From assembly GCF_013408535.1 (NCBI RefSeq), contig NZ_JACBZA010000001.1, forward strand, positions 2,564,850 to 2,628,849: DNA of 64,000 nucleotides, in the 5' to 3' direction. Position numbers and translations under genes: made by a program. The DNA is from Actinopolymorpha cephalotaxi (lineage in GTDB: Bacteria > Actinomycetota > Actinomycetes > Propionibacteriales > Actinopolymorphaceae). Within the stretch, counting starts at the first letter, position 1. Every line of letters begins with the position of its first letter. The notes below the pieces were generated by a model. That model did no database searches and was not told the DNA's origin. It saw only the letters and a program-made list of their open reading frames with translations. Below, one piece after another: positions 52,010 to 58,418 of this stretch.

Positions 52010-53995
52010 CTAGACCTGGACGCGGCTGCGTACGGCCTCGAGGATCTCTGCCACCGCCTCGTCGACCGGCACGCCGTTCTTCTGCTCACCGGAGCGGTAC
52101 CGGAACGACACCGCACCCTTGGCGACGTCGTCGTCGCCGGCCAGCAGCATGTATGGCACCTTCTGCTTCTGCGCGTTGCGGATCTTCTTCTGCATCCGGT
52201 CGTCGGAGGTGTCGATCTCGACCCGGATGCCGTGCTCGGCGAGCTTCGCGGCGACGTCGCGGAGGTAGGGCACGTGCTCGTCGGTGATCGGGATCCCGAC
52301 CACCTGGACCGGCGCCAGCCAGGGAGGGAACGCGCCGGCGTAGTGCTCGACCAGGACGCCGAGGAACCGTTCGATCGACCCGAACTTTGCCGAGTGGATC
52401 ATCACCGGCTGCTGTCGCGACCCGTCGGCCGCCTGGTACTCCAGCCCGAACCCGGCCGGCTGGTTGAAGTCGTACTGGATGGTCGACATCTGCCAGGTGC
52501 GCCCGATCGCGTCCCGGGTCTGCACCGAGATCTTCGGGCCGTAGAACGCCGCGCCGCCCGGGTCGGGCACCAGCTCCAGGCCGGTCTCCTTGGCGGTGTC
52601 CTCGAGGATCTTGGTGGCCTCGGCCCACTGCTCGTCGGAGCCGATGAACTTGTCGGAGTCGTCGCGGGTGGACAGCTCGAGGTAGAAGTCGTCCAGCCCG
52701 AAGTCCTTGAGCAGCCCGAGCACGAAGCCGAGCAGGTGCTTGATCTCGTCGGCCGCCTGCTCGGGCGCGACGTAGGAGTGCGAGTCGTCCTGGGTCATGC
52801 CGCGCACCCGGGTGAGGCCGTGCACGACGCCGGACTTCTCGAACCGGTAGACCGCGCCGAACTCGAAGAACCGCAGCGGCAGCTCGCGGTAGGAGCGGCC
52901 CCGCGAGCGGTAGATCAGATTGTGCATCGGGCAGTTCATCGCCTTGACGTAGTAGTTCGCGCCCTCCAGCTCCATGGGCGGGAACATCGTGTCGGCGTAG
53001 TACGGCAGGTGCCCGGAGGTCTCGAACAGCCCCTGCTTGGTGAGGTGCGGCGTCCCGACGTACTGGAAGCCCTCCTCCAGGTGGCGCCGGCGGACGTAGT
53101 CCTCCATCTCCCGCTTGATGACACCGCCCTTGGGGTGGAACACCGCGAGGCCGGAGCCGAGCTCGTCGGGGAAGGAGAAGAGGTCCAGCTCGCGGCCGAG
53201 CTTGCGGTGGTCGCGCCGCTCGGCCTCCTCCAGCCGCTGGAGGTAGGCCTTGAGCGCGTCGCGGGACTCCCAGGCGGTGCCGTAGATGCGCTGCAGCTGG
53301 GGGTTCTTCTCACTGCCCCGCCAGTACGCCGCCGCCACCCGCATCAGCTTGAACGCCGGGATGGTGCGGGTGGTGGGCAGGTGCGGTCCGCGGCACAGGT
53401 CCTTCCAGGCCAGCTCGCCGTCGCGGCGCAGGTTGTCGTAGATGGTCAGCTCGCCGCCGCCCACCTCGACGCCGGCGCCCTCCGCGGCCGCGCCGGCACC
53501 GCCCTTGAGACCGATGAGTTCCAGCTTGTACGGCTCGCCGGCCAGCTCGGTGCGGGCGTCGTCGTCGCCGACCACCCGCCGGGAGAACGCCTGCCCCTCC
53601 TTGACGATCTCCTGCATGCGCTTCTCGATGCGCTTGAAGTCGTCGGGATGGAACGGCTCGGCGACGTCGAAGTCGTAGTAGAAGCCGTTCTCCACCGGCG
53701 GGCCGATGCCGAGCTTCGCCTCGGGGAAGAGCTCCTGCACCGCCTGGGCCAGCACGTGCGCGGTGGAGTGCCGCAGGATCGCCCGGCCGTCGGTGCTGTC
53801 GATCGCCACCGGCTCCACCTCGTCGCCGGCCGACAGCGGCCAGGCGAGGTCGCGCAGCTCGCCGTTGACCCGGGCGGCCACGACGGAGCGGTCGCCCGGT
53901 TGGACGCCGAGCGCCGCACCGGCCGTCGTGCCCGTCGTCACCTCGGCCTCGGCGTGCTCGCCGGAACGGACGACGGTGACGGTGATCTCGGACAC
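52010..53995 (-). CDS. thrS: Threonyl-tRNA synthetase
   Basis: Charges tRNA-Thr and edits mischarged serine. The 661-aa protein has a TGS domain, the N2 editing domain ([21 protein letters not shown]), the class II core with [26 protein letters not shown] and the zinc cysteine in that motif, and a C-terminal anticodon domain ([19 protein letters not shown]). The GTG at 53995 starts [12 protein letters not shown]. No T-box-like leader is visible in the 100 bases upstream. Confidence 0.97.
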
Positions 53996-54098
53996 TTCGG
54001 GCTCCTCCGGGGGTACGGGGACAGCGAGTGGACTGAGTGGACTACCCGGCGATCCTATGCGGTGCCCCCGGGTGTCCCGGAGCCGCCGCACGCGCCTG

Positions 54099-54683
54099 TC
54101 AGGACCGCGCACCGGCCGGCCGGTAGCCGACCCCGACCTGGGCGGGGCGCAGCAGCCGGTCGGCCAGCGCGTAGCCGGGCCGGCGCACTTCCACCACCCG
54201 GCCCACCTGGTCGCCGGGCTCGACCGGAACCCGGGCCACCGCCTCGTGCACCCGGGGGTCGAACTCCTGACCTGTCGCGTCGACCTCGCGCAGGCCGCGC
54301 CGGTGCAGGATCTCCAGCAGCTCCGCGCGCACCGAGCCGAGGTTTCCGGCGTCGTCCGCGGCATCGTTCGCGTTCCCGTCACGGGCCACCTGGCCGGTGA
54401 GCGCGTCGATCCGGTCCACGACGAGCAGGATCTCCCGGGCCAGCGGCGCCACGAACTCCTCGACCAGGCCCTGCCGGGCGAACTCCAGCTGGCGGTACAG
54501 CTCGTCGTACATCCGCTGCCGGGCCTGGTCCTCCAGCAGGCGGCGCTGGAACAGGTCGCGCAGCGCGGCCACCTCCTTCGCCAGCTCGGCCACCTCCGGC
54601 GACCCGGCCAGGTGCTGCGCGGCCGGCCCCCCGTCAGGCTGCTCGGCCGGTTGCCTCACCGGCTGCGAGGTTCGTTCGGACAT
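54099..54683 (-). CDS. GrpE-like nucleotide exchange factor
   Basis: A 194-aa cytoplasmic GrpE homologue. A coiled coil occupies about residues 28-70 ([38 protein letters not shown]). The C-terminal beta domain contains [46 protein letters not shown], the GrpE signature region. It is smaller and more diverged than the housekeeping GrpE, which should be encoded elsewhere with dnaK. It starts 2 bp after the J-like gene and should serve the Hsp70 encoded two genes upstream. Confidence 0.85.
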
Positions 54684-54685
54684 GC

Positions 54686-55762
54686 CTAGATTCCCTTCCG
54701 GAAGGTTCCGCCGTAGGTGGGCCCGCGGCCGCCGCCCCGGCCGCGGCCGTATCCGCGCCGGTGCTGCTTCCAGGCCGGCTGCCGGTGGCGGAAGACGTAC
54801 AGCACGAGAATCAGCACGATCCAGCACGCGCCCACCACCCGCAGGCTCTGCACGTGGGCGAGGGCGACGAACAGGATCGCGCCGGCCAGCGGGACGAGGT
54901 ACAGCCGCAGCGAGCGGCTGCGCACCCACACCGGGGCGCGGGCCTCGGCGAGCAGGTCCTTCAGCTCCTCGGCGTACATCGTCACGTTCCAGTCGGTCAG
55001 GCCGAGCTTGCGGATGCGGCGCAGGTGCCGGCGGACCAGGGTGTACTGCCGCCGGGAGGTGATGACCGGCCGGTCGGTTCCCCGGCCGTCGCCCCAGTGG
55101 TCGACGCTGGTGACGGCCACCTCGTACAGCGCGGTGGCCAGCGCGACCTTGACGTCCTCCGCCTCGGGGTTGGCCTCGGCCGCGCGCTGCAGGACCGCCA
55201 GCCCCTCCTTCACCTTGCCGGCACCGACCTGGGCGGCACCCAGGCCGGTGAGCGCGCGGAGATTGCCGGGCTCGCGTTCACGGACGTAGTCGTACTCGGC
55301 CTGGGCGAGGCGCCACCTGCCCTGCTCGAGGTAGCGGTCGCCCCGGCGCAGGTGGTCGTGCAGGTCGGGATCGCGGCGGTGACCGGACGAGCCCTGGCCG
55401 CCGGAGCCGGTCCCGCCGGAGCCGGAGCCACTCGACCCCCTCGGCCCGCCCGGTGCGGGGGCCGGCGCGGGCACCCGGTCGCGAACGCCGCCGCCGGGGC
55501 CGGTCGCGCCGCCCGCGGTCGCCGCGGCCTGCCGGGCCCGGGCGAGTTTCTCGTCGTACGCCGAACGTGCCGCCGGGTCCAGCAGCGCCTTCTCCGCCGC
55601 GTCGACGTCACGCACCCGCTGCTCGGCGTAGGCCCGGCGCTCGGGGTCCGGGCTGGACTGGCGGCGCACCCAGACCCGGCGCTGCGCGGTGATCGCCGCC
55701 CGGATCTGCTCGGCGCCGGCGCTCGGCGCGACCTCGAGGATCTCGTAGTAGTCGACGGGCAT
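54686..55762 (-). CDS. Membrane-anchored J-domain/TPR protein with degenerate HPD motif
   Basis: A 358-aa protein. Residues 1-70 form a J-like domain (DYYEILEVAPSAG, then RDVDAAEKALLDPAARSAYDEKL), but the HPD tripeptide that activates Hsp70 reads SPD (37-39). A Gly/Pro/Ser-rich linker (80-130) leads to TPR-like helices (135-215, HLRRGDRYLEQGRWRLAQAEYDYV). Two membrane segments follow at about 286-303 and 307-325, and the tail is Arg/Gly-rich. It should face the cytoplasm at the membrane. Possibly it recruits the adjacent Hsp70 without stimulating its ATPase in the standard way; this is inference. Confidence 0.8.
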   Translation of the reverse strand: MPVDYYEILEVAPSAGAEQIRAAITAQRRVWVRRQSSPDPERRAYAEQRVRDVDAAEKALLDPAARSAYDEKLARARQAAATAGGATGPGGGVRDRVPAPAPAPGGPRGSSGSGSGGTGSGGQGSSGHRRDPDLHDHLRRGDRYLEQGRWRLAQAEYDYVREREPGNLRALTGLGAAQVGAGKVKEGLAVLQRAAEANPEAEDVKVALATALYEVAVTSVDHWGDGRGTDRPVITSRRQYTLVRRHLRRIRKLGLTDWNVTMYAEELKDLLAEARAPVWVRSRSLRLYLVPLAGAILFVALAHVQSLRVVGACWIVLILVLYVFRHRQPAWKQHRRGYGRGRGGGRGPTYGGTFRKGI

Positions 55763-55821
55763 GGTCTCAGTCGTCTTCAGTCAGCACAGTCGGCTCGGTC
55801 GTCATCGGTCGGCTCGTCGGC

Positions 55822-57408
55822 TCAGCTGATGTCGAGCAGCCGCATCCGGTCGGTGGCCGACGCGACCTCGCCCTCGGCCATCGTGGCGACGTTGTTCACC
55901 TCGAAGGTGCCGATCCGCTCCCCCGACGTCTTGTCGTGCACCTCGATGAAGACTGTCTGGTCGATGTCGTACGCGTAGACCACCTCGAACGGCGCGCCCG
56001 CCGGATAGGGCGGGATGTCGAAGGTCTGCTCGCCGATCGCGCGTACGTAGTCGGGGTCGTCGTCGTCGCCCTGGGTCACCTCGACCTTGAGCCGGGTCTG
56101 GTTGTTCTCGATGGTCTCGAACACCTGGCCGCGCTTGGCGGGGATCTTGGTGTTGGCCGGGATGATGACGACGTTCTCCACGTCCTCGGCCGAGGCGGCG
56201 CCGCGGCGTACGGCCAGCGCGCCCAGCCCCTGCGAGGTGACGTCGCGCACCCGGGGGCGGGTCACCGCCGACGCCAGCACCGGCAGCGGCTCCGCGCTGA
56301 TGCCGTCGACCGTGCCGGAGGCGCTGCCGTTCGTGCTCTCGCCGGTGACCTTGTCGAGGTCGACCAGGTGCGCCTGGATCGCCGCACCCAGCGCGACCAC
56401 CTCGTCGGGATTGACCGTACGGATGGGCTCCCGACCGGCGACCTTCCCGATCATCGCCCGCACCATCGGCATCCGGGTCGACCCGCCCGCGAGCAGCACG
56501 TGGTCGACACCGGGCCAGTCCAGGCCGGCGTCACCGACGACCATCTCGGCGATGTCGCGGGTGCGGCTGACCAGGCTGGAGGTGACGTCCTCGAACTCCG
56601 CCCGGGTCAGCGGCACGACCTTCGACACCCCGCCGCCGGACAGCACCACCCGGGTCTGCTCGACCGTGGTGAGGCTGCGCTTGGCGATCTCGGCCTTCTC
56701 CCGCAGGTCCGCCTCGGCCTCGGCGCCGTCCAGCAGGCTCGGCCCACCGGCGGCCTGGAAGCGTTCGTCCAGCAGGCGCATCAGCAGGTTGTCGAAGTCG
56801 AAGCCGCCGAGGTTGCGGTCGCCGTGGGTGGCGAGCACGTCGAAGTCGCCGCCGCCCACCCGCATCACGGTCACGTCGAACGTCCCTCCGCCGAGGTCGT
56901 AGACACACACGGTGCCCTCGACCTCGTGCTCGACGCCGTAGGCGAGTGCCGCGGCGGTCGGCTCGTTGAGGACCCGGGCGACGTTCAGCCCGGCGATCCG
57001 GCCGGCGTCGATGGTCGCCCGCCGCGGGGCGTCGTCGAAGTACGCGGGGACGGTCACCACCGCGTCGGTCACCGGCGAACCCAGCGCGAGTTCGACGTCG
57101 TCCTTGATGCGGCGCAGGATGATCGCGGAGATCTCCTCCGGCCGGTACGTCGTCCCGCCGCTGGTCTCGAACTTCCAGCTCGGGTCGCCCATCGACCGCT
57201 TCACGAACTGCACGACGTCCAGCGGCGCGGTCACCGCGGAGCGTTTCGCCATCGTGCCCACGATCGGCAACTCGTCCTGGAACAGCACGACCGACGGCGT
57301 GAGGCGCTCGCCGTCCCGGTTGACCACGATCTCGGGCTTGCCGAGGTCGTTCACCCGCGCGGCGGCGGAGTAGGTGGTGCCCAGGTCGATACCGATCGTG
57401 TGCCCCAC
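55822..57408 (-). CDS. Hsp70 family chaperone with shortened C-terminus
   Basis: A 528-aa DnaK-like protein; DnaK proper is about 610-640 aa. The nucleotide-binding domain is complete: IGIDLGTTYSAAA, FDDAPRRATIDAGRIAGL, LNEPTAAALAYG, DLGGGTFDVTV and LLAGGSTRMPMV. After about residue 370 comes a beta-sandwich-like substrate domain (about 120 residues), but the alpha-helical lid is largely missing. The last residues (VATMAEGEVASATDRMRLLDIS) are short. It is the first gene of Hsp70 - J-like - GrpE-like and differs from the housekeeping DnaK. No CIRCE or HAIR element is visible in the 209 bp upstream, where GGAACCAGTCC is repeated twice. Confidence 0.9.
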   Translation of the reverse strand: MGHTIGIDLGTTYSAAARVNDLGKPEIVVNRDGERLTPSVVLFQDELPIVGTMAKRSAVTAPLDVVQFVKRSMGDPSWKFETSGGTTYRPEEISAIILRRIKDDVELALGSPVTDAVVTVPAYFDDAPRRATIDAGRIAGLNVARVLNEPTAAALAYGVEHEVEGTVCVYDLGGGTFDVTVMRVGGGDFDVLATHGDRNLGGFDFDNLLMRLLDERFQAAGGPSLLDGAEAEADLREKAEIAKRSLTTVEQTRVVLSGGGVSKVVPLTRAEFEDVTSSLVSRTRDIAEMVVGDAGLDWPGVDHVLLAGGSTRMPMVRAMIGKVAGREPIRTVNPDEVVALGAAIQAHLVDLDKVTGESTNGSASGTVDGISAEPLPVLASAVTRPRVRDVTSQGLGALAVRRGAASAEDVENVVIIPANTKIPAKRGQVFETIENNQTRLKVEVTQGDDDDPDYVRAIGEQTFDIPPYPAGAPFEVVYAYDIDQTVFIEVHDKTSGERIGTFEVNNVATMAEGEVASATDRMRLLDIS

Positions 57409-57617
57409 GAGTCCGTCCCTTCCAACACGCCGTCAACCACACCGAAGACCGGCCGGAGAACACACCGGCGACCGGGCCGGAACCAGTCCGGAACCAGTCC
57501 ACCCAACGTAGCTGAACCTTCACCTTCGTGGCGTTCCGCCATCCCGGCATCATGCCGCCCGGATCCGACATCCCCGGGACGACCGCGGTACCGCGCGTTC
57601 CGGTTACCCTCCCGTTC

Positions 57618-58418
57618 GTGCTCATCCTGTTGCCGCCCTCGGAGGGCAAGGCCGCCCCCGGCAGAGGACGTCCGGTCGACCTGGACTCGCTGTCGCTGCC
57701 CGAACTCACCCCGGCCCGTACGAAGGTCCTCGACGCGCTGGCCGGTCTGTGCGGCGACACGGAGCGGACCGACGAGGCGATGGCAGTGCTCGGGCTGTCC
57801 GCGAGCCAGCGCGGCGAGGTCGAACGCGACGCGCGCCTGCGCGACGCGCCGACGCTGCCGGCGGCCAGGCTGTACACCGGAGTGCTGTACGACGCACTCG
57901 ACTTGGCCTCGCTCGGGGCGGTACAGCGTCGCCGGGCGCAGCGCTTCCTGCTGGTCTGCTCCGGCCTGTGGGGCGCGGTCCGGTTGCGTGACCGCATTCC
58001 GGCGTACCGCTGCTCGATGACGGTCCGGTTGCCCGGCGTCGGCCCGCTGGGCGCCTTCTGGCGGGAGAGCATGCCGGCCGCGATCGCCGGTGCTGCCGGC
58101 CGCGGGCTGGTGCTGGACCTGCGCTCCTCGGCGTACGCCACCGCCTGGACGCCCACCGGCGAACTGGCCGGGCGCACCGCGACCGTGCGGGTGCTGCAGG
58201 AGACGCGGCCCGGCGACGCCTCCAGCCGTACCGTCGTCAGCCACTTCAACAAGGCCACCAAGGGCCGGCTGGTCCGCGACCTGCTGAACAGCGACGACAC
58301 CCCACGCCGCCCCGCCGACCTGGTCGAGGTGCTGCGGGGGCTGGGCTACCAGGTCGAGGCCGAGCGCCCCGAGCGCGGACGTCCCTGGCCGCTGGACGTC
58401 GTGGTCACCTCCGTCTGA
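57618..58418 (+). CDS. yaaA: Peroxide stress protein YaaA (DUF328)
   Basis: A 266-aa cytoplasmic protein of the YaaA/DUF328 family; the E. coli member limits free iron and DNA damage during peroxide stress and binds DNA. All family motifs are seen: ILLPPSEGK at the N-terminus, LYTGVLYDAL, SGLWGAVRLRDRIPAYR, LVLDLRSSAY and VSHFNKATKGRLVRDLL. The GTG at 57618 is chosen because it begins the LPPSEGK strand; longer starts add a Pro-rich stretch. It is divergent from the Hsp70 operon across 209 bp. Confidence 0.93.
   Translation: MLILLPPSEGKAAPGRGRPVDLDSLSLPELTPARTKVLDALAGLCGDTERTDEAMAVLGLSASQRGEVERDARLRDAPTLPAARLYTGVLYDALDLASLGAVQRRRAQRFLLVCSGLWGAVRLRDRIPAYRCSMTVRLPGVGPLGAFWRESMPAAIAGAAGRGLVLDLRSSAYATAWTPTGELAGRTATVRVLQETRPGDASSRTVVSHFNKATKGRLVRDLLNSDDTPRRPADLVEVLRGLGYQVEAERPERGRPWPLDVVVTSV

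What the first reader, a model, noticed from the sequence alone, without database searches (positions are those of the whole stretch)
54099..57408. Non-canonical membrane-linked Hsp70/J/GrpE operon
Three adjacent genes form a complete but altered chaperone triad: an Hsp70 of 528 aa whose helical lid is mostly missing, a J-like protein with TPR helices and two C-terminal membrane segments in which the catalytic HPD reads SPD, and a compact GrpE-like protein. In established Hsp70 biology HPD is needed to trigger ATP hydrolysis, so this module either works without J-stimulation or uses another activator. Its membrane anchor suggests a dedicated substrate at the inner membrane.
Basis: partly seen in the sequence, partly recalled or inferred. 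Interest (0 to 1): 0.75.

Follow-up and report, generated by a model that had tools for sequence, protein, structure and literature searches.

The report
Lidless Hsp70 with HPD-less J partner
A soil actinobacterium carries, beside its ordinary heat-shock chaperones, a small dedicated chaperone set whose probably membrane-bound helper lacks the three residues thought to switch such chaperones on, and the relatives found here share that loss, so it looks selected rather than accidental.

Summary
Observation confirmed. An Hsp70 (528 aa), a J/TPR protein (358 aa) with two C-terminal hydrophobic segments and a GrpE (194 aa) lie in one minus-strand gene run (54099-57408) of an Actinopolymorpha genome that also has five other Hsp70s, three other GrpEs and four HPD-bearing DnaJs. 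The three genes are adjacent in 20 of 21 related loci found. HPD is absent from all 22 J proteins: the aligned triplet is SPD in 11, otherwise QAD, SAD, APD, APS, AAD, KGG or HPN. The Hsp70 changed too: lid gone (18 of 18), linker VLLL replaced, J-contact D477 lost (18 of 18), and both residues that hold the HPD aspartate lost together in four members. ATPase residues and most cleft salt-bridge residues remain. The J domain is under purifying selection within the genus. Most likely this is a specialised, membrane-tethered Hsp70 cycle in which a pseudo-J domain docks the Hsp70 rather than switching it by HPD. In five relatives an FtsK/SpoIIIE ATPase gene follows the module, and in two Kribbella a CHAT (caspase-like) gene; in all eight Actinopolymorphaceae loci thrS follows. 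It is neither HscC/DjlC-type nor the published GAP1-N2 Hsp70 system. No biochemistry was possible.

The parts
55822..57408 (-). Hsp70-family ATPase, 528 aa (GTG start): NBD, long linker, SBD-beta, no helical lid
   Evidence: ORF; PF00012 E=5.3e-120; alignment to E. coli DnaK/HscA/HscC; model (mean pLDDT 67.7); tree
56362..57408 (-). nucleotide-binding domain (residues 1-349); T199, D201, E171, K70 equivalents present; GrpE signature loop 6 residues shorter than in DnaK
56257..56361 (-). long variable linker (about residues 350-384) before PRVRDVTS, which replaces DnaK VLLLDVTP
   Evidence: pLDDT under 50 over 355-424
55822..55887 (-). C-terminal stub (residues 508-528 and stop), in place of the lid and tail of E. 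coli DnaK
   Evidence: 20 residues after DnaK 505 in 18 of 18 family members; one short helix 512-522, low confidence
54686..55762 (-). J-like / TPR / two-segment membrane protein, 358 aa
55532..55762 (-). pseudo-J domain (residues 1-77); helix II 17-34, helix III 40-60
   Evidence: AlphaFold2, block pLDDT 85-94; hhalign to canonical DnaJ, probability 97.9
55646..55654 (-). S37-P38-D39, aligned with HPD by hhalign and MAFFT
   Evidence: read
55661..55669 (-). V32-R33-R34, the residues that fall on HPD if helix II is read without a gap; helical in the model
54938..55366 (-). TPR region (residues 133-275)
   Evidence: TPR_19 and TPR_16; structure matches to TPR chains
54860..54910 (-). hydrophobic segment 1 (residues 285-301)
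   Evidence: hydropathy 2.12; helix
54794..54844 (-). hydrophobic segment 2 (residues 307-323)
   Evidence: hydropathy 2.49; helix
54099..54683 (-). GrpE-like nucleotide exchange factor, 194 aa
   Evidence: PF01025 E=2.6e-23, 83 bits (cut-off 25.8)

Best explanation
A dedicated, membrane-tethered Hsp70 system that runs beside the housekeeping DnaK machines. Shown: a conserved gene run of a lidless Hsp70 with intact ATPase residues, a TPR protein whose J domain has lost HPD in every family member found, and a GrpE, with changes on the Hsp70's J-docking side as well. Inferred: the two C-terminal helices hold the J-like protein in the cytoplasmic membrane with both ends inside; its TPR domain selects the client; its pseudo-J domain binds the Hsp70 as a dock or placer (Pam16-like) rather than as an HPD trigger; hydrolysis comes from the intrinsic rate, from the client, or from a trigger not yet identified; without a lid, client holding is weak and short; GrpE resets the nucleotide, which fits the retained cleft salt-bridge residues.
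For: HPD in 0 of 22 J proteins. The three genes adjacent in 20 of 21 loci: Actinopolymorpha and its family, Kribbella, another family of the order, a Rhodococcus plasmid, a MAG, other families of the class and other classes of the phylum. The 18 Hsp70s compared form one side of a branch, 97/97. Lid lost 18 of 18; L392 kept as L or M in 2 of 18; D477 lost 18 of 18; E206 acidic in 1 of 18; R167 and Q378, which bind the HPD aspartate in DnaK (PMC8215388), both lost in 4 of 18 (G041, G425, G403, G645) and both kept in 5 of 5 DnaK controls, HscA and HscC (the four own-genome DnaKs are two near-identical pairs). In G403 (SPD) and G645 (APD) the J protein keeps D although both Hsp70 partners of that D are gone, so D39 is probably kept for another reason; it directly precedes helix III. 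K70, E171, T199, D201: 18 of 18 each; cleft positions K55 (K/R) 18 of 18, R56 15 of 18, E264 (E/D) 18 of 18, E267 18 of 18. J-domain dN/dS 0.11-0.30 in three comparisons within the genus. At least two hydrophobic segments near the C terminus in 20 of 22 J proteins. The genome holds four DnaJs with HPD and three other GrpEs.
Against: No biochemistry. R167 and Q378 are both kept in 13 of 18, the window included, so the aspartate pocket is mostly still there. The Hsp70 GrpE signature loop is 6 residues shorter than in DnaK, a change that in HscA and HscC goes with apparently not using GrpE (PMC8215388). hhalign and MAFFT both put SPD on HPD, so a working variant motif is possible. E206 is also R in E. 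coli HscA, which works with HscB, so that change alone proves nothing. Hydropathy is a crude membrane test; it also gave one marginal segment in the GrpE, taken as a soluble control.
Confidence: 0.5

Rival explanations
1. The SPD loop is a working variant of HPD: J and Hsp70 co-evolved, as DjlC (HPE) and HscC did, and the J-like protein does stimulate ATP hydrolysis of this Hsp70 only.
For: hhalign and MAFFT align SPD with HPD. R167, Q378, D393 and P419 are all kept in the window Hsp70. E. coli DjlB and DjlC read HPE, and DjlC stimulates HscC (PMC8215388). A designed J-domain analogue without HPD stimulated Hsc70 (PMC13254874, passage).
Against: The triplet is not kept (SAD, QAD, AAD, APS, KGG, HPN in relatives). 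The histidine is absent in 21 of 22 and the one H has lost the D (HPN). HPN and QPD abolish stimulation in tested J proteins (PMC13254874). Helix II runs through 34 and helix III starts at 40 in the model. R167 and Q378 are lost in G403 and G645, which keep SPD and APD.
Confidence: 0.22
2. The trigger is supplied in trans: one of the genome's HPD-bearing DnaJs pairs with the pseudo-J protein (Pam16/Pam18-like) and activates the membrane Hsp70.
For: Four DnaJs with HPD in the genome. R167 and Q378 are kept in the window Hsp70. Pam16, with DKE in place of HPD in yeast, binds Pam18 (PMC13254874).
Against: The Hsp70 linker and acidic J-docking positions differ from DnaK. R167 and Q378 are lost in four relatives. 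No second J gene was found beside the triad except in G015, whose two J genes both lack HPD.
Confidence: 0.15
3. The triad is the chaperone part of a secretion or conflict system (FtsK/SpoIIIE motor or CHAT protease with partner proteins); the window copy is a stand-alone derivative. Compatible with the main explanation.
For: An FtsK/SpoIIIE ATPase gene follows the module in 5 loci (L094, L088, L087, L092, L120) of the 20 whose downstream side could be read at least in part (L051 ends there). These ATPases are mutually homologous, and an 86-aa helical protein is shared by three of the loci. Two Kribbella triads are followed by a run of genes with a CHAT protein. One copy is on a plasmid.
Against: No FtsK of this kind in the window or the other seven Actinopolymorphaceae loci, where thrS lies downstream, nor in G000 at E<=1e-50. 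A search of 396 genomes found this FtsK family in 8, but the query was built from triad-linked copies, two of which (G294, G425) are the best hits themselves; the five further places I read, in four of the other six genomes, had no Hsp70, J or GrpE of this family nearby. My Fisher test on those counts (p=0.002) is therefore circular and is withdrawn. In L120 the FtsK frame is split in two and the Hsp70 is a remnant, so that locus may be decaying. No PADLOC model fits the window Hsp70 or GrpE; the J protein matches only a generic TPR model.
Confidence: 0.3
4. A decaying relic: HPD and the lid were lost because the module is no longer used.
For: Loss of HPD and lid; one relative (L120) holds only an Hsp70 remnant, no GrpE and a split FtsK.
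Against: dN/dS below 0.4 in the J domain, TPR region, NBD, SBD and GrpE core within the genus; intact frames and conserved gene order; losses shared across classes of the phylum.
Confidence: 0.05

Closest known systems
E. coli HscC with DjlB/DjlC
   Same: A diverged, shorter Hsp70 paired with tail-anchored J proteins whose HPD is altered (HPE), beside the housekeeping DnaK system; shortened GrpE-signature region in the Hsp70 (PMC8215388)
   Different: HscC keeps more C-terminal residues (84 after DnaK 505, against 20) and R167 and Q378; it lacks the cleft salt bridges and is thought not to use GrpE (PMC8215388). DjlB/DjlC keep H and P; TPRs were not sought in them. The window Hsp70 is 46% identical to E. 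coli DnaK and 36% to HscC over the NBD.
Type IV / pseudo-J proteins (Pam16, DnaJB13; plant J-like proteins seen only in a search listing)
   Same: Recognisable J domain with HPD replaced (PMC13254874, section 7 and passages read)
   Different: A bacterial gene run in which the pseudo-J is encoded with its own Hsp70 and GrpE, and the Hsp70 side has changed too
GAP1-N2 GTPase-centric systems, second theme (Kaur et al. 2020, PMC7159879, sections 28 and 29 read)
   Same: Neighbourhoods, mostly in actinobacteria and firmicutes, with HSP70, GrpE and a DnaJ- or TPR-fused protein; membrane-linked
   Different: No GAP1-N2 match in 14 of the 15 triad genomes searched; the one match lies on another contig than the triad. 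The published J/TPR protein carries FNIII repeats; Pfam found none in the window protein.
DnaK/DnaJ/GrpE
   Same: Three components, NBD catalysis residues, cleft salt-bridge residues, GrpE
   Different: No lid, altered linker, no HPD, probably membrane-tethered J protein

Membership tests
Hsp70 superfamily | Hsp70 NBD with ATPase residues, plus SBD-beta | tested here: met
   PF00012 E=5e-120; K70, E171, T199, D201 in 18 of 18; Foldseek E=9e-44 to DnaK
DnaK type | helical lid and VLLL linker | tested here: not met
   20 residues after DnaK 505; linker PRVR
HscC type | cleft salt bridges absent in most members, no GrpE use, shortened lid (PMC8215388) | tested here: not met
   K55, R56, E264, E267 equivalents present in the window Hsp70; GrpE gene in the run; lid absent rather than short. 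GrpE use itself not testable here.
Functional J-domain protein | J-domain helical hairpin | tested here: met
   hhalign probability 97.9; helices I-IV in the model; Pfam DnaJ 24.3 bits alone, 29.1 with frame neighbours, cut-off 27.8. Foldseek gave no PDB match at E<=0.001 for the whole model.
Functional J-domain protein | HPD motif | tested here: not met
   0 of 22
Functional J-domain protein | stimulates Hsp70 ATPase | not testable with these tools
   needs purified proteins
Type IV / pseudo-J protein | clear J domain with HPD non-conservatively replaced (PMC13254874) | tested here: met
GrpE | PF01025 over its curated cut-off | tested here: met
   83 bits, cut-off 25.8
GAP1-N2 Hsp70/GrpE conflict systems | GAP1-N2 gene in the neighbourhood | tested here: not met
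   PF20013: no match in G000; 1 of 15 triad genomes searched (of 21 loci), on another contig. The accession was recalled; the tool returned it as GAP1-N2.
Membrane protein | insertion in the cytoplasmic membrane | not testable with these tools
   hydropathy and model only

The most novel reading that the evidence does not exclude
A complete bacterial Hsp70 cycle has evolved away from HPD control: Hsp70 and pseudo-J lost the trigger together, and a membrane-bound TPR/pseudo-J platform places a lidless Hsp70 and GrpE on clients of a membrane machine. In several lineages that machine is an FtsK/SpoIIIE motor with small helical partner proteins, making this a chaperone-driven feeding module of an undescribed transport or conflict system, from which the window copy became stand-alone.
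Probability: 0.22. Interest if true: 0.85.

Novelty: new variant of a known kind. Interest (0 to 1): 0.6.

Why it matters
A 2026 review calls it enigmatic whether HPD deviations are accidents of evolution or selected for, and says the role of such proteins in the Hsp70 network is not elucidated (PMC13254874, section 7 and passages read). Here the pseudo-J is encoded with its own Hsp70 and GrpE, is under purifying selection within the genus, and the Hsp70 shows matching losses. Three proteins from an organism not known to me as a pathogen can be purified and assayed, so the question becomes directly testable. If the Hsp70 cycles without HPD, the rule that HPD is indispensable has a natural exception.

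Tried and rejected
Only dnaK of the genome: rejected. Intact HPD elsewhere in the J domain: rejected. HscC ortholog: rejected. GAP1-N2 system: rejected. Known anti-phage system: no PADLOC model fits the window Hsp70 or GrpE, and the J protein matches only a generic TPR model. HspR/HAIR control: a recalled consensus gave no match in the window with up to 3 mismatches. Sigma-70 scan of 53900-57700: no promoter-like site. Sister families with intact HPD outside the phylum: not reached; the one genome-contig scan gave 7 loci and the plasmids gave one full relative. G703, a TPR-type match without the J part, was left out. Hsp70s of G008, G011 and G294 (cut by the stretch or contig end) and G652 (remnant) were left out of the 18 compared. 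The structure search of the J model was filled by TPR matches and had none at E<=0.001, so the J fold was barely tested there; one J-domain chimera appears at E=0.026. A Fisher test of FtsK with the triad is withdrawn as circular, because the FtsK query was made from triad-linked copies; the odds of the transport rival and of the novel case were lowered for that (0.35 to 0.30, 0.25 to 0.22), and those of the relic rival raised from 0.04 to 0.05 for the split FtsK in L120. Proteins downstream of FtsK have no Pfam match over cut-off; an ART hit in L087 (E=0.01) and a WXG100_2 hit in L120 (E=0.29) are below cut-off and are not claimed. The paper searches did not list this triad with FtsK; that is no proof that it is not in print.
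Full report
What is there. On the minus strand of the window three genes follow one another: an Hsp70 (57408-55822, 528 aa), a J-like protein (55762-54686, 358 aa) and a GrpE (54683-54099, 194 aa), with gaps of 59 and 2 bases. Pfam supports all three: HSP70 E=5e-120, GrpE E=3e-23, TPR repeats, and a DnaJ match of 24.3 bits that is under its cut-off for the protein alone and over it with frame neighbours (29.1). A threonyl-tRNA synthetase gene lies downstream and yaaA diverges upstream.

Not the only chaperone set. The genome has ten HSP70 matches in six genes, four GrpEs and, besides this protein, four DnaJ genes, each with HPD. One of the other Hsp70s, an orphan at 5.93 Mb, belongs to the same lidless family; no J or GrpE of this family was found within the 15 kb read around it.

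Relatives. I gathered 21 loci with 22 J proteins (G015 has two). Hsp70, J and GrpE genes are adjacent in 20 of 21; the order is Hsp70-J-GrpE in 18, with the doubled J of G015 among them, and J-Hsp70-GrpE in two (G041, G403). In G294 the Hsp70 is cut by the contig end. The exception, G652 (L120), has J followed by an FtsK gene whose frame is split in two, no GrpE, and a weak Hsp70-like remnant of about 40 codons (11.7 bits). The family is sparse: I recognised it in 4 of 396 genomes drawn over the phylum (three matches nearly full length, G425 over part) and in 5 of 394 over the class, while all eight listed genomes of the window's own family have it (41 genomes without a match are not listed there).

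The J domain. None of 22 has HPD in its first 120 residues. Under MAFFT the aligned triplet is SPD 11, QAD 3, SAD 2, APD 2, and APS, AAD, KGG and HPN once each (for G041 and G652 I read the alignment rows, because the script's motif finder caught the wrong tryptophan there). hhalign agrees with SPD over HPD, with a gap of five residues in helix II. Read without that gap, W31, invariant in both family alignments, falls on the aromatic residue before HPD, and V32-R33-R34 fall on HPD. The AlphaFold2 model, from 8 sequences with block pLDDT of 85-94 here (whole model 77.0, pTM 0.51), has helix II at 17-34 and helix III at 40-60; I read this as a longer hairpin with a shorter tip loop than in DnaJ (DnaJ helix limits recalled). 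D39 sits directly before helix III. D, S, N or G at that place fits a helix N-cap (inference). Either way the histidine is gone in 21 of 22, and the one that has it (Rhodococcus, HPN) lacks the aspartate. HPN and QPD are reported to abolish stimulation; HPE of DjlB/DjlC is the only replacement said to be tolerated (PMC13254874, section 7 read); I saw HPE in both genes.

The Hsp70. I aligned 18 family members (17 loci and the orphan; G008, G011, G294 and G652 left out as incomplete) with E. coli DnaK, HscA, HscC and four own DnaKs, which are two near-identical pairs. Lid: 20 residues after DnaK 505 in 18 of 18, against 133-153 in five DnaKs, 84 in HscC, 114 in HscA. Linker: L390 is L or V in 3 of 18, L392 is L or M in 2 of 18, D393 is kept in 18 of 18, P396 becomes S in 17. 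J-docking residues: E206 acidic in 1 of 18, D477 kept in 0 of 18, R167 in 14, Q378 in 13, P419 in 18. R167 and Q378, which hold the HPD aspartate in DnaK (PMC8215388, section 8 part 1 read), are lost together in G041, G425, G403 and G645. Two of these (G403 SPD, G645 APD) keep the aspartate in J, so that aspartate is unlikely to be kept for that pocket. Catalysis: K70, E171, T199, D201 in 18 of 18. Cleft positions: K or R at 55 in 18, R56 in 15, E or D at 264 in 18, E267 in 18 (that these four positions make the salt bridges is recalled). The GrpE signature region is shorter (11 residues, 7 in G403, against 17 in DnaK). HscA and HscC have a related loss and are thought not to use GrpE (PMC8215388, section 12 part 2 and passages read), so this sits oddly with a conserved GrpE gene. 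The Hsp70s form one side of a branch with support 97/97 (unrooted, with long-branch warnings for HscC, HscA, G425 and G403).

Selection. Against A. rutila, A. pittospori and A. alba, dN/dS is 0.11, 0.30 and 0.15 in the J domain, 0.14-0.37 in the TPR region and 0.08-0.16 in the NBD; the J and Hsp70 linkers are looser, 0.39-0.61 and 0.64-1.4. The HPD-less domain is not drifting within the genus.

Membrane. At least two hydrophobic segments near the C terminus in 20 of 22 J proteins (G015b and the MAG have one). In the window they are model helices flanked by arginine-rich ends, which suggests a hairpin with both ends in the cytoplasm (inference). The GrpE gave one marginal segment by the same measure.

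Wider context. Five loci carry an FtsK/SpoIIIE ATPase behind the module: Rhodococcus plasmid L094, L088, L087, L092 and L120. These are mutually homologous, and an 86-aa helical protein is shared by L094, L120 and L087. A search of 396 genomes found this FtsK family in 8, but its query came from triad loci, G294 and G425 among them, so the association cannot be tested with it; five further FtsK places read, in four genomes, had no triad nearby. In two Kribbella loci the triad is followed by a run of genes with a CHAT-domain protein. In eight of eight Actinopolymorphaceae loci a thrS gene lies downstream and no such FtsK was seen (two of the stretches are short, and in A. alba yaaA lies between). 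The published idea nearest to this is the second theme of GAP1-N2 systems (PMC7159879, sections 28 and 29 read), but GAP1-N2 has no match in 14 of 15 triad genomes searched and lies on another contig in the fifteenth. CoCoNuT work describes WXG100/FtsK operons as mobile, secretion-like units (PMC11090510, passages read); a link is not shown here.

Verdict. A real, conserved variant of the Hsp70 machine, not an artefact and not HscC. Whether it runs without J-stimulation is unproven; the joint change of both partners makes that the likeliest reading.

Noticed in passing
L084:6305-7987 (G000 at 5.93 Mb): Orphan Hsp70 of the same lidless family, with Q378 changed to M, beside a long ORF with a ParA/CbiA-like domain; no J or GrpE of this family nearby.
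   Followed up: partly
L094:4413-11280 (Rhodococcus pseudokoreensis plasmid): Hsp70, J, GrpE, FtsK and an 86-aa helical protein in one run on a plasmid; J reads HPN.
   Followed up: partly
L120:4304-9124: J-like gene followed by an FtsK gene split in two frames and small genes, with only an Hsp70 N-terminal remnant and no GrpE found.
   Followed up: partly
L091:1786-6357 and L123:10123-17228: Kribbella triads followed by a run of genes that includes a CHAT-domain protein.
   Followed up: partly
L086:6650-8577: Two tandem J-like genes, both SPD, in one gene run.
   Followed up: no
L085:11174-13153: ISL3 transposase and two Hsp70 fragments behind a J-Hsp70-GrpE set.
   Followed up: no
L093:5566-14854 (G000 at 5.72-5.73 Mb): Two full-length DnaKs, identical over the NBD columns used for the tree, flank grpE, dnaJ, a short gene and a gene that looks ClpB-like by eye.
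   Followed up: no
window 55822-55887 and family C termini: All 18 family Hsp70s compared end the same distance after DnaK 505 with a short tail, often hydrophobic near the very end; a possible peptide for the TPR domain of the J partner.
   Followed up: no
window 57528-58418: yaaA (peroxide stress protein) diverges from the Hsp70 gene; it lies close by in A. rutila, A. pittospori and A. alba too; shared control is unknown.
   Followed up: no
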